64,000 nucleotides of DNA from Hymenobacter aerophilus DSM 13606 (lineage in GTDB: Bacteria; Bacteroidota; Bacteroidia; Cytophagales; Hymenobacteraceae): the NCBI RefSeq assembly GCF_000382225.1, contig NZ_KB907805.1, positions 62,001-126,000 of the forward strand. The letters run 5' to 3'. The notes under the pieces are model-generated. The model saw only the letters and a list, made by a program, of their open reading frames with translations. It searched no databases and had not been told where the DNA came from. The position numbers and the translations under genes are program-made. Shown here in pieces: positions 17,021-21,422 of this stretch. How positions within the stretch are numbered: the stretch's first letter is position 1; every line of letters begins with the position of its first letter.

Positions 17021-17214
17021 TAGTTTTTTTGGTTGGAAGCGGACCCTTTTCGGCGCTTTTTTGTTTATTACCCCTTTGCCGCGCCCCGGCCGGCTGCCTT
17101 CGGGCGCTGCCAGACGGGGCGCGGGCTTGTTCTTTTGTTTTCGCGGAAGTGGCCCGAGTGGCCCGAACCTTGCACGGTTTGGGCCGCGGGTACCGTTTTG
17201 TTCCGCCGTTTAAA

Positions 17215-18165
17215 GTGCTTTCTGTTTTGAAAAACGTCAGACCGCTCGGCAAGCTCATTGCCATTGGTGGCAACGAGGATAAGGGTACTTACCCCAATCC
17301 GCGCACCAAGAAGAAATACTACCTCAACTTTTTTGAGCTGGGTATCCTCAAGCGCGTAGTGCTCGAATCGGGAAAAGAAGACCCGCGCATTGAGGTTATC
17401 ACCACCGCTTCCATGATTCCCGACGAGGTGGCCCGCGTTTATATTTCCTCGTTCACGATGCTCAACTGCAACAACGTGAACGTGCTCGACATCCGCACCC
17501 GCGAAGATGCGTTGCGCCCCGATTACGTGGAGCGCATCCGCCAGGCCGATATCGTGATGATGTCGGGCGGCAATCAGTCGCGGCTGGTGCAGATTTTTGG
17601 CGGCACCGAGTTTCTGGCCGCCCTCAAGCACCGCTACCAGACGACGGCCAACTTTGTGGTGGCCGGCACCTCGGCCGGGGCCATGGGCATGTCGAAAACC
17701 ATGATTAAAGGCGGCAGCGTGCCCGATGCTCTGATGAAGGGCGCCGTGAAAATGGGCAGCGGCCTGGGGTTGATCGACAACGTTATTATCGACTCGCACT
17801 TCGTGAAGCGCGGGCGCTTCGGCCGACTCATTGAGGCCGTGGCTTTGCACCCCAAGCTTATCGGCATCGGGCTGGGCGAGGATACGGGCATGCTCATCAC
17901 CGGGGGCAACCAGCTCGAAACCATCGGCTCGAACATGGTGGTGATTATGGACGGGCACCAGCTGGAGCATAGCAATGCCGCCGCCGCCCAGAAGGGCGAG
18001 GGCATTTCGGTAGAAAACATGCTGCTGCACGTGCTGGTGCAGGGCAACCTCTACGACGTGGCGCAGCGCCGCTTCTTCCCCGACCTGAAGCTGCAGCAGC
18101 AGGCCGCCGAATCGGCCCGGATTGAGGCCACCCAGCCCGCCAACGCCCCCGCTATAGCCGGATAA
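17215..18165 (+). CDS. cphB: Cyanophycinase-like serine peptidase (S51)
   Basis: About 316 residues. Features of the S51 family: KLIAIGGNEDKG at the start, MMSGGNQSRLV, the nucleophile elbow GTSAGA with Ser153, and the conserved IIDSHFVKRGRFGRL. Cyanophycinase cuts multi-L-arginyl-poly-L-aspartate to beta-Asp-Arg dipeptides. Start choice is uncertain: the frame is open from a TTG at 17029, but similarity begins only at NVRPLGK; I chose GTG 17215, and TTG 17227 is also possible. It is convergent with an isoaspartyl peptidase, which would finish the breakdown. No cyanophycin synthetase is in the window. Confidence 0.88.
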   Translation: MLSVLKNVRPLGKLIAIGGNEDKGTYPNPRTKKKYYLNFFELGILKRVVLESGKEDPRIEVITTASMIPDEVARVYISSFTMLNCNNVNVLDIRTREDALRPDYVERIRQADIVMMSGGNQSRLVQIFGGTEFLAALKHRYQTTANFVVAGTSAGAMGMSKTMIKGGSVPDALMKGAVKMGSGLGLIDNVIIDSHFVKRGRFGRLIEAVALHPKLIGIGLGEDTGMLITGGNQLETIGSNMVVIMDGHQLEHSNAAAAQKGEGISVENMLLHVLVQGNLYDVAQRRFFPDLKLQQQAAESARIEATQPANAPAIAG

Positions 18166-18337: not shown

Positions 18338-19303
18338 TCAACCCTTGTAAATGGCCACGAACGGAGCCGCGTCGCGGGAGGTCTGGCTGGCGCGGTACAT
18401 GCCCTCGGAGTTGAAGGGCAGCGCCACATTGCCGGCCGCATCCACGGCCACCAGCCCGCCCTCGCCCCCGATGGGCGCCAGCTTGTCGTGCACTACTATG
18501 CGGCAGGCTTCGGCCAGGCTCAGGCCCCGGTACTCCATCAGGCAGCTGATGTCGTGGGCCACTACGGCCCGCAGGAAAAACTCGCCGTGCCCGGTGCAGC
18601 TGATGGCGCAGGTGCGGTCGTCGGCGAAGGTGCCGCTGCCGATGATGGGCGAGTCGCCGATGCGCGAGTAGCGCTTGTTGGTCATGCCGCCGGTGCTGGT
18701 GGCGGCGGCCAGGTGGCCGTGCTGGTCGCGAGCCACCGCGCCTACCGTGCCCATTTTCTTTTTCGGGTCCTCGCTCCCACCGCTGCCGGCCTGGGCCTGC
18801 GAGTGGTCGAGGCGCATGCGGCCCTCCTGCAGCGCCTCCTGCAACTGGTCGTAGCGGTGCTGGGTGAAAAAGTAGTCGGCCGGCTGCATGGCCAGGCCGT
18901 GCTCGCGGGCCAGCTCGTCGGCGCCGGGCCAGGCCAGCAGCACGTGCTCGGTCTGCTCCATCACGAGGCGGGCGGCCCGGATGGGGTTCTGCACCTGCCG
19001 GGCGCCGGCCACGGCCCCGGCCGCCCGGTTGCGGCCGTCCATGATGGCGGCGTCCATTTCGTGGTGGCCGTCGTGGGTGAACACCGCGCCCCGGCCGGCA
19101 TTGAACAGCGGGCAGTCTTCGAGGCGGAGCACGGCCTGCTCTACGGCGTCGAGGGCGGAGCCGCCGCCGGCCAGCACCGCGTAGCCGCTGCGCAGGGCTT
19201 CGTGCAGGGCGGCCTGGTAGGCCTGCTCTTTTTCGGGCGTCATCTGGGCGGGCGAAATGGTGCCGGCACCACCGTGCAGGGCCAGGGCGAAAGTTGGAGT
19301 CAT
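18338..19303 (-). CDS. iaaA: Isoaspartyl peptidase / L-asparaginase (Ntn hydrolase)
   Basis: 321 residues with the family start ALHGGAGTI, the pattern FNAGRGAVFTHDG HHEMDA, and the autoprocessing site MG-T-VGAVA; Thr186 would become the N-terminal nucleophile after self-cleavage. TSTGGMTNK and GDSPIIGSGT complete the active site. It hydrolyses isoaspartyl dipeptides (including beta-Asp-Arg from cyanophycin) and asparagine. It faces the cyanophycinase gene. A TACCTTTG box on the minus strand at 19344-19351 gives a leader of about 35-40 nt. Confidence 0.93.
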   Translation of the reverse strand: MTPTFALALHGGAGTISPAQMTPEKEQAYQAALHEALRSGYAVLAGGGSALDAVEQAVLRLEDCPLFNAGRGAVFTHDGHHEMDAAIMDGRNRAAGAVAGARQVQNPIRAARLVMEQTEHVLLAWPGADELAREHGLAMQPADYFFTQHRYDQLQEALQEGRMRLDHSQAQAGSGGSEDPKKKMGTVGAVARDQHGHLAAATSTGGMTNKRYSRIGDSPIIGSGTFADDRTCAISCTGHGEFFLRAVVAHDISCLMEYRGLSLAEACRIVVHDKLAPIGGEGGLVAVDAAGNVALPFNSEGMYRASQTSRDAAPFVAIYKG

Positions 19304-19471: not shown

Positions 19472-19897
19472 ATGGCTTACGAAGCTACCGGCCGCCTGCA
19501 CGAAATTTTCGACGAACAGCAGGTGAGCGAAAAATTCCGCAAGCGTGAATTTGTATTGGAAGTTATCGACGGCCAGTACCCCGAGCATATCAAGTTCCAG
19601 ACGGTGCAGGACAAGACGGCCCTCATCGACCCGTTTAAAGTGGGCGACGAAGTGAAGGTGTCGTTCAACCTGCGCGGCCGCGGTTTCAACAAGAACGGCC
19701 AGATGCTGTACTTCACCAACCTCGAAGCCTGGCGCATCGAGAACTCCGCGGGTGGCGCTGCTGCTCCCCAGCAGGGCGGTGGTGGCTACCAGCAGGCCGC
19801 CCCGCGCGCTGCTGCTCCCGCCCAAAACCAGAACCCCAACCTGCGCGCCTCGGCCGCCCCGATTGCCTCGGACGACGACAACGACCTGCCCTTCTAA
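19472..19897 (+). CDS. DUF3127 OB-fold-like protein with SSB-like acidic C-terminus
   Basis: 141 residues. Residues 1-92 match DUF3127, a small beta-rich domain found in Bacteroidota (ATGRLHEIF, FRKREFVLEV, FNLRGRGFNKNGQML). A Gly/Gln/Ala/Pro-rich linker follows, and the last residues are DDDNDLPF, very like the acidic amphipathic tip of single-stranded DNA-binding proteins (DxDIPF) that recruits repair and replication proteins. The build, OB-like domain plus disordered linker plus tip, copies that of SSB. Binding to single-stranded nucleic acid is inferred. The gene stands alone, with its own promoter and a terminator after a repeat. Confidence 0.88.
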   Translation: MAYEATGRLHEIFDEQQVSEKFRKREFVLEVIDGQYPEHIKFQTVQDKTALIDPFKVGDEVKVSFNLRGRGFNKNGQMLYFTNLEAWRIENSAGGAAAPQQGGGGYQQAAPRAAAPAQNQNPNLRASAAPIASDDDNDLPF

Positions 19898-19991: not shown

Positions 19992-20026
19992 AAAAAGCCG
20001 CTGCCGCAACTGGCAGCGGCTTTTTC
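19992..20026. terminator. Intrinsic terminator
   Basis: AAAAAGCCGCTGCC pairs with GGCAGCGGCTTTTT around a GCAACT loop. Confidence 0.9.
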
Positions 20027-20084
20027 GTGCCTTGCGGCTGCTGGCGCCTGCGTGCGCCTCGGCCCCTTCCACCCCACTCAACCT

Positions 20085-21422
20085 ATGCATACGCTTGCAC
20101 AATTACGGGCCGGCGAGCTGGCCGGCGCTACCCGGCTGGATCTGGCCGAGGGCTTGACCGAGTTTCCGCCGGAGATATTTACGCTGGCCGATACGCTCGA
20201 AGTGCTCAACCTTTCGGGCAACGCGTTGCGTGAACTGCCGGCCGAGCTGCCCCGGCTGCACCGGCTGCGGGTGCTGTTCGCCTCCGACAACCAGTTCGAG
20301 CGCGTGCCCGAAGTGCTGGGTCAGTGCCCGAACCTGGAAATGGTGGGCTTCAAGGCCAACCGCATCCAGGAGCTACCGGGTGCCGCGCTGCCGCCGCGGC
20401 TACGCTGGCTTATCCTGACTGATAATGCCCTGGAAGCTCTGCCCGCGGAAATTGGCAACTGCCCGCGCCTGCAGAAGCTGATGCTGGCCGGCAACCGGCT
20501 GCGGACCCTGCCGCCTGAGCTGGCCCGCTGCCTCAACCTGGAGCTGCTGCGCCTGGCTGCCAACGCGCTGACCGAGCTGCCAACCTGGCTGCTGAACATG
20601 CCACGGCTGAGCTGGCTGGCCTTTGCCGGCAACCCGCTAACCGCCGAAGCCGAGGCCGCCGCCGAAGCGCATCCGGCCCGCCCGGCTATTGCCTGGGATG
20701 AGCTGCAGCCGGGGGCTATGCTGGGCGAAGGGGCGTCGGGCCTGATTTACCGCGCCCACTGGCAGCCCGCTTCGGCGGCTTCGCAGCAGGTGGCGCTCAA
20801 GCTGTTTAAGGGCGCCGTAACGAGCGACGGGCTGCCGCACTGCGAAATGCTGGCCTGCCTGCGTGCCGGCCTTCACCCCAACCTGATTGCCGTGGAAGGC
20901 CGCCTGACCGGCCACCCGGCCGGCACCGAGGGCCTGGTGCTGGAGTTGATTGGGCCGGAGTTTACGAATCTGGCCGGCCCGCCCACCCTGGCCAGCTGCA
21001 CCCGCGACGAGTACGCGCCCGCCACCCGGTTCGAGCTGCCCGCGCTGCTACAGTTGGCCGGTGGTATTGCCGCGGCGGCAGCCCAGCTGCACGGCCGCGG
21101 TATTGTACACGGCGACCTGTACGCCCACAACATCCTGGCCACCAACACGGGCGCGGCTTTGCTCGGCGACTTTGGGGCAGCCGGCTTCATACCCCCGACC
21201 AGCCCCGAAGCCACCGAACTGTTGCCACTCCTCGAAAGCCGGGCCTTTGGTAATCTGCTGGAAGAGCTGCTCGACCGTTGCCCGGTCCGGCCCGAAACTG
21301 CCGCCACCCTGGCCGAGCTGCGCGACTGGCAGGCCCGCTGCCAGCAGCCGCAGGTAGCGGCGCGTCCCCGGCTGGCCGAGGTCAGCCAGCGGCTGCGGGA
21401 GTTGCAGCAGCTGGCCGGCTGA
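20085..21422 (+). CDS. Leucine-rich-repeat protein kinase
   Basis: 445 residues from the ATG at 20085. Residues about 15-190 contain six to seven leucine-rich repeats (LEVLNLSGNALRELPAEL, LRWLILTDNALEALPAEI, LEMVGFKANRIQELP). A Ser/Thr/Tyr kinase-like domain follows: glycine loop LGEGASG from 213, VALKLF with the ATP-binding Lys, HGDLYAHN with catalytic Asp344, and DFG from Asp362. The HRD motif is HGD, as in aminoglycoside-kinase-like or atypical kinases, but the other residues needed for phosphotransfer are present. No membrane segment. Substrates are unknown; the LRR part presumably binds a protein partner. Confidence 0.9.
   Translation: MHTLAQLRAGELAGATRLDLAEGLTEFPPEIFTLADTLEVLNLSGNALRELPAELPRLHRLRVLFASDNQFERVPEVLGQCPNLEMVGFKANRIQELPGAALPPRLRWLILTDNALEALPAEIGNCPRLQKLMLAGNRLRTLPPELARCLNLELLRLAANALTELPTWLLNMPRLSWLAFAGNPLTAEAEAAAEAHPARPAIAWDELQPGAMLGEGASGLIYRAHWQPASAASQQVALKLFKGAVTSDGLPHCEMLACLRAGLHPNLIAVEGRLTGHPAGTEGLVLELIGPEFTNLAGPPTLASCTRDEYAPATRFELPALLQLAGGIAAAAAQLHGRGIVHGDLYAHNILATNTGAALLGDFGAAGFIPPTSPEATELLPLLESRAFGNLLEELLDRCPVRPETAATLAELRDWQARCQQPQVAARPRLAEVSQRLRELQQLAG

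What the first reader, a model, noticed from the sequence alone, without database searches (positions are those of the whole stretch)
19472..19897. DUF3127 protein ending with an SSB-like tip
OB-like domain, disordered linker and DDDNDLPF end recreate the layout of single-stranded DNA-binding proteins, which recruit partners by the acidic tip. DUF3127 has no established function, so this is a hypothesis for it.
Basis: inference. Interest (0 to 1): 0.55.

Follow-up and report, generated by a model that had tools for sequence, protein, structure and literature searches.

The report
Second SSB with conserved acidic tip
This small protein of unknown function looks like a second single-stranded-DNA-binding protein found in many Bacteroidota, and its last two residues, part of the likely docking tip for repair and replication partners, are among its most conserved.

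Summary
Window 19472-19897 (+) encodes a 141-aa DUF3127 protein with an OB domain (1-91), a disordered linker and the tip SDDDNDLPF. The OB domain alone matches solved SSBs and a Bacteroidota SSB profile, but scores far below the SSB family cut-off: a divergent SSB relative that probably works like an SSB. In the window's genome, of the frames ending in [K/N/Q/H/D/E]-LPF, only this protein and one SSB are gene-sized. In six other genomes no detected SSB ends in PF, yet DUF3127 ends DDLPF. PHROGs and phage records already call phage relatives SSB, so the label is not new; the tip constraint, the bacterial spread and the tip-less-SSB genomes go beyond it. ssDNA binding and partner binding are inferred, not shown.

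The parts
19472..19897 (+). DUF3127 protein gene, 141 aa plus stop, SSB-like layout
   Evidence: single PF11325 match in the genome at E<=0.001
19472..19744 (+). OB domain, residues 1-91 (E3-12 E23-33 E36-45 H46-52 E60-74 E77-91)
   Evidence: AlphaFold2 model; SSB matches in the PDB
19745..19867 (+). disordered G/Q/A/P-rich linker, residues 92-132
   Evidence: low pLDDT, high column entropy
19868..19894 (+). acidic tip SDDDNDLPF, residues 133-141
20003..20020 (+). terminator-like hairpin downstream (weak: 2 sites found in the region, 1.4 expected by shuffling)

Best explanation
The protein is an auxiliary single-stranded-DNA-binding protein. Its OB domain (an SSB-type fold shortened by about 20 residues) binds ssDNA, probably as an oligomer. 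Its flexible linker presents an acidic ...DNDLPF tip that docks into the same pockets (PriA, RecO, RecQ and similar) that read the tip of the housekeeping SSB. So it works beside SSB as a second recruiting platform. In some lineages whose SSB has lost its tip, it could be the only SSB-type protein left that can recruit partners. Shown: presence, fold prediction, relation to SSB, tip constraint, wide distribution, genomes with tip-less SSB. Inferred: ssDNA binding, oligomer, docking to partners.
For: A profile of the OB domain without tip or linker hits SSBs in the PDB: best 1se8 at E=3e-8; 24 of the 28 sequences listed at E<=1 are SSBs, though only the first is below 0.001. HHalign against 9 Bacteroidota SSB OB domains: probability 92.6%, E=4.7e-7. 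Foldseek: ranks 1-39 of the PDB list are SSBs, best E=3.4e-6; VIA Z about 11-12 to SSBs, mitochondrial SSBs and PriB. phrog_4932 'single strand DNA binding protein' covers residues 4-141, tip included, E=5.6e-24. Tip: 89 of 91 bacterial proteins end PF, with D or E at -4 in 84 of 91; 79 of 80 named and 66 of 80 viral relatives end PF. The column aligned by eye with E. coli SSB Trp-88 (F72 here) is aromatic in 86 of 91, and column 70 is basic in 85 of 91. In three annotated phages the gene lies near endonuclease, helicase, primase or NinG genes. In the window's genome and two congeners (G072, G166) both DUF3127 and SSB end in LPF. Six genomes (G012, G210, G265, G281, G007, G099) in which no detected SSB ends in PF have DUF3127 ending DDLPF and have PriA and RecO matches (the RecO of G281 is below the curated cut-off).
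Against: No biochemical data. The score against the SSB family model is far below its cut-off (13.9 against 53.95 bits, E=0.05), and no Pfam family other than DUF3127 reached E<=1. Two proteins of family f12 (L042, L045) lack PF although acidic residues remain; the SSBs of those genomes keep DDDLPF, so the DUF3127 tip is not required everywhere. 14 of 80 viral relatives do not end PF (one of them is cut off by the contig end). No repair or replication gene is conserved beside it in bacteria: in 21 loci with 5-kb flanks only two neighbour families recur in three or more loci, each in 4 (greedy ORF picking may miss genes). DUF3127 gave no match in 125 of 296 sampled Bacteroidota genomes. The published tip pocket of PriA is itself not conserved in S. 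aureus PriA (PMC5531588, passages), so docking cannot be assumed. An OB fold alone does not prove ssDNA binding.
Confidence: 0.8

Rival explanations
1. PriB-like replication-restart factor: the OB domain works mainly in the primosome, binding ssDNA and PriA, and the tip holds PriA; not a general ssDNA-coating protein.
For: PriB structures are ranks 1, 2, 4 and 5 of the VIA list (Z 12.1-12.3), tied with SSBs. PriA is present in 9 of 9 genomes checked. Trp82, Tyr86 and Lys370 of the published tip pocket (PMC5531588, passages) match W, Y and K in the PriA of G012 when read by hand off the alignment.
Against: Sequence profiles list SSBs and no PriB. Foldseek ranks SSBs first and PriB at 40. PriB lacks an SSB-like tip (recalled). 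The alignment ends at about residue 697-698, so Arg697/Gln701 could not be judged, and one PriA only was aligned.
Confidence: 0.15
2. Tip decoy or regulator: the OB domain no longer binds ssDNA (or binds RNA), and the tip competes with SSB for partners such as RecO or PriA.
For: PF tip kept in 89 of 91; OB folds also serve RNA and protein binding (recalled); no conserved DNA-repair neighbours in bacteria.
Against: Aromatic and basic residues of the OB domain are kept (W87 in 87 of 91, column 70 basic in 85, column 72 aromatic in 86, column 36 aromatic in 87 of 91). The three annotated phages examined carry it near replication or recombination genes.
Confidence: 0.08
3. Tip conservation is mere relatedness or composition, without function.
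For: Many sampled proteins are close relatives, and the 80 named loci are nearly all Hymenobacter.
Against: The bacterial set reaches down to about 30% identity to the window protein, and the linker just before the tip varies widely while the tip does not.
Confidence: 0.02

Closest known systems
Bacterial SSB (TIGR00621; E. coli SSB, B. subtilis SsbA)
   Same: OB fold order, disordered linker, acidic PF tip, aromatic residue at the Trp-88-like position
   Different: OB domain about 91 residues instead of about 110; 13.9 bits against a cut-off of 53.95; found beside, not instead of, an SSB in all 62 DUF3127-bearing genomes that were searched with TIGR00621
Phage DUF3127 proteins (phrog_4932; Flavobacterium phage mymlan6-1 gp36, Tenacibaculum phage Gundel_1 gp117)
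   Same: Same domain, linker and, in 66 of 80 viral relatives, a PF end; annotated SSB
   Different: Phage-borne, near primase/helicase or NinG genes; the window gene is chromosomal, with no such neighbours
PriB
   Same: Small SSB-type OB protein, Z about 12
   Different: No linker or acidic tip (recalled)
Anabaena All4779 with tail-less Alr0088/Alr7579 (PMC3976300, abstract read)
   Same: A 'hypothetical' tailed OB protein beside tail-less annotated SSBs was proposed as the major typical SSB
   Different: Cyanobacterial; relation of All4779 to DUF3127 not tested
S. aureus SsbC (PMC5945547, listing and start of abstract only)
   Same: A further SSB-like protein beside SsbA and SsbB in one genome
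   Different: Not compared here

Membership tests
PF11325 DUF3127 | score above gathering cut-off over the full domain | tested here: met
   94.2 bits against 27, profile 1-85 of 85
phrog_4932 phage single strand DNA binding protein | full-length profile match | tested here: met
   E=5.6e-24, residues 4-141, profile 2-117 of 117; the label itself is an annotation
Bacterial SSB sensu stricto (TIGR00621) | score above curated cut-off | tested here: not met
   13.9 against 53.95 bits; no Pfam family other than DUF3127 at E<=1
Bacterial SSB (as a working design) | SSB-type OB fold | tested here: met
   predicted model and fold searches; profile relation
Bacterial SSB (as a working design) | disordered linker and acidic tip ending PF, conserved | tested here: met
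Bacterial SSB (as a working design) | base-stacking aromatic residues | tested here: inconclusive
   aromatic at the Trp-88-like column in 86 of 91 (position matched by eye, residue list from PMC3991886 passages); equivalents of Trp-40, Trp-54 and Phe-60 not settled
Bacterial SSB (as a working design) | ssDNA binding; oligomer of OB domains; tip docking on partners | not testable with these tools
   needs purified protein
PriB | SSB-type OB protein without a tip (recalled) | tested here: not met
   fold similar, but a PF tip is present and conserved
PriB | acts in the primosome | not testable with these tools
   needs genetics or biochemistry

The most novel reading that the evidence does not exclude
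Division of labour: in some Bacteroidota (four of the six sampled genomes of family f6, probably Weeksellaceae, plus G007 and G099) every detected SSB is a tip-less or tip-eroded ssDNA coat, and DUF3127 carries the recruiting tip for the replication and repair network, so the single SSB hub known from E. coli is split over two proteins. With the DnaB helicase of the same phylum also ending in a PF tail, several replication proteins may share the same docking pockets.
Probability: 0.35. Interest if true: 0.72.

Novelty: new variant of a known kind. Interest (0 to 1): 0.5.

Why it matters
DUF3127 was found in 171 of 296 sampled Bacteroidota genomes. By hand count 72 of these are of the window's own class, and one class member appears among the non-matches that were listed (105 further non-matches are not listed; the rows look sorted by kinship). 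If it is a second SSB with a working tip, a widespread group of bacteria has a two-protein SSB hub that the E. coli picture does not contain, and a 'domain of unknown function' becomes a directly testable replication/repair factor. Genomes whose SSB lacks a tip are natural settings in which the DUF3127 tip can be tested.

Tried and rejected
Gene context: in 21 loci with 5-kb flanks (20 genomes plus the window) only two neighbour families recur in three or more loci, each in 4 (they look like aat and a flavin-reductase-like gene, names recalled); nothing points to a pathway. Inside the named close relatives the block with asparaginase and AlbA genes is conserved (78 and 77 of 80 loci), which reflects synteny within the group, not function. 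Mutual avoidance of tip loss: no genome of the 50 paired lacks both PF ends, but with 2 DUF3127 and 7 SSB losses the expected overlap is only about 0.3, and losses cluster by family, so this is no evidence of coupling. The idea that family f12 lost both tips together is wrong: its SSBs keep DDDLPF or DDLPF (4 of 4 read; DUF3127 read in 2 of these 4). Literature: full-text search for DUF3127 gave 1 paper, PF11325 none; the listings of the combined searches show no study of a bacterial DUF3127 protein; most subscription papers are not held. The terminator-like hairpin is no better than chance.

Rows dropped: the 93 frames (L001, L004-L095) come from 89 of the 171 genomes with a match, chosen as the 30 best-scoring places plus about one per genus; L052/L056 (two pieces of one frameshifted gene, G077) were left out of the 91. 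L168 (H. amundsenii) is the one non-PF of the 80 named loci and reads out of frame near its end. Viral locus L258 runs off its contig and counts among the 14 that do not end PF. The pairing used 50 of the 62 DUF3127-bearing genomes searched for SSB: G198 was left out because its long SSB was not fetched, and 11 others because their DUF3127 proteins were not in the 91 (among them G095, G210, G265 and G277 of f6). Where a genome has several SSBs I used as a rule the long one; for G196 this was the best-scoring one, which lacks PF although another SSB of that genome (L412) ends PF.

Full report
What is there. Window 19472-19897 on the + strand is a 141-aa ORF, the only PF11325/DUF3127 match in its genome. 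The genome is probably a Hymenobacter (named Hymenobacter loci match at up to 99% over the best segment). Residues 4-90 match DUF3127 at E=5.7e-27.

Fold. With 65 aligned sequences AlphaFold2 gives E3-12 E23-33 E36-45 H46-52 E60-74 E77-91, block means of pLDDT above 90 up to residue 90, and low confidence afterwards. Foldseek against the PDB ranks SSBs at places 1-39 (best 6bhw, B. subtilis SsbA, E=3.4e-6) and PriB at 40. VIA puts PriB, yeast and human mitochondrial SSB and bacterial SSBs together at Z about 11-12. Sequence agrees: a profile of 13 OB domains without linker or tip finds the SSB 1se8 at E=3e-8; 24 of its 28 hits at E<=1 are SSBs, though only the first is below 0.001. HHalign with nine Bacteroidota SSB domains gives probability 92.6%, E=4.7e-7. 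Against the curated SSB model the protein stays far below cut-off, so it is a divergent relative, not a TIGR00621 member.

Tip. I read 93 DUF3127 frames from 89 Bacteroidota genomes: 90 end in PF. Leaving out the two halves of one frameshifted gene, 89 of 91 end PF; D or E stands at -4 in 84 of 91 and L or V at -3 in 80 of 91; entropy falls from 3.5-3.8 bits (positions -12 to -9) to 0.17 bits for the last two. P140 and F141 (89 of 91 each) are kept as well as W87 (87) and G7 (86). The exceptions L042 and L045 (family f12) keep acids but not PF. Of 80 named close relatives (mostly Hymenobacter) 79 end PF; of 80 viral loci 66 do.

Own genome. Two SSB genes match TIGR00621. One ends ELDQLPF and follows a mutY-like gene (name recalled). 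The other lies before a recombinase-like gene (name recalled) and has no PF end. A scan of the whole genome for [K/N/Q/H/D/E]-LPF-stop gives four DNA matches (control 14); only DUF3127 and the first SSB are gene-sized frames that end there.

Comparison with SSB tips in the same genomes. SSB searches covered 67 distinct genomes (32, 16 new, 19 new), 62 of them with DUF3127; each has at least one SSB match. For 50 genomes I paired one DUF3127 and one SSB end: DUF3127 ends PF in 48, SSB in 43. All six sampled genomes of family f6 have a tip-less SSB of 109-110 aa; in four (G012, G210, G265, G281) it is the only SSB match at E<=0.1, and in two (G095, G277) a further, weaker SSB with a PF tip exists. 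G007 has one SSB, ending PEDNE; G099 has two, neither ending PF (E<=0.001). All six genomes in which no detected SSB ends in PF carry DUF3127 ending DDLPF and have PriA and RecO (9 of 9 genomes checked for each; RecO over cut-off in 8, not in G281). In family f7, by contrast, both a tipped and a tip-less SSB were read in 11 of 12 genomes; in the twelfth, G198, the long SSB was not fetched. In G214, G269 and G033 the main SSB end is altered but other matches were not read. A scan for [D/E][D/E]-x-PF-stop in six f6 and four f7 genomes gave 47 DNA matches against 18 for the reversed control. In f6 the gene-sized frames among them are DUF3127 (6 of 6 genomes), DnaB (5 of 6) and the two extra SSBs; in f7 also a few others. 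That pattern needs acids at both -4 and -5, so a tip such as NDLPF would escape it. The name Weeksellaceae for f6 is inference: the plasmid relative of its SSB with the highest identity is from Elizabethkingia anophelis, 71% over 70% of the query (a search that hit its 5000-record limit).

Phages. 113 phage records match. In three annotated records the gene lies near an endonuclease, helicase and primase (mymlan6-1), NinG (Gundel_1) or primase/helicase and NinG (filifjonk9-1). All three call it single strand DNA binding protein; two of them cite PF11325 as part of the ground. Pantoea phage AAS23 gp25 is described as an SSB with a DUF3127 domain (PMC8004638, passages).

Mechanism. Best reading: an auxiliary SSB whose OB domain holds ssDNA and whose tip recruits the SSB partner set. 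Steps shown: homology, fold prediction, tip constraint, distribution. Steps inferred: DNA binding, oligomer, partners. F. psychrophilum SSB, a normal flavobacterial SSB of 140 aa ending DLPF, is reported as a homotetramer (PMC3991886, passages), so the tip is a regular part of SSB in this phylum. A precedent for a hypothetical tailed OB protein being proposed as the major SSB beside tail-less ones is Anabaena All4779 (PMC3976300, abstract).

Limits.

Noticed in passing
L438-L455 (whole genomes); window's own genome G000:C6:142360-144708, outside the window: The best-scoring DnaB helicase of Bacteroidota has a C-terminal tail that ends in PF in 17 of 18 genomes read (for example DDDDDFPF, DDEDDVPF, FDDGPPPF; exception G281 ending DDFEY), much like an SSB tip. 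E. coli DnaB lacks it (recalled). One text search listed nothing on it.
   Followed up: partly
L448 (G000) and L450 (G166): DnaB frames of the window's genome and a congener are 883 and 879 aa instead of 460-546 in the other 16 genomes read, so they carry an insertion of roughly 350 aa, probably an intein.
   Followed up: no
families f6 and f7, loci L122, L124-L152: A tip-less SSB of about 110 aa stands beside the tipped one in f7 genomes and is the main or only SSB in the six f6 genomes.
   Followed up: partly
window 17200-18162 (+) and 18341-19303 (-): A peptidase S51 (cyanophycinase-like) gene and an Asparaginase_2 gene converge just upstream, a possible cyanophycin or peptide breakdown pair; both are found in most loci of the named close relatives (70 and 78 of 80).
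   Followed up: partly
window 20052-21419 (+): Leucine-rich repeats fused to a protein kinase domain; detected in 11 of the 80 named relatives' loci.
   Followed up: no
L052/L056 (G077) and L168: Frameshifted DUF3127 copies, either real decay or assembly errors.
   Followed up: no
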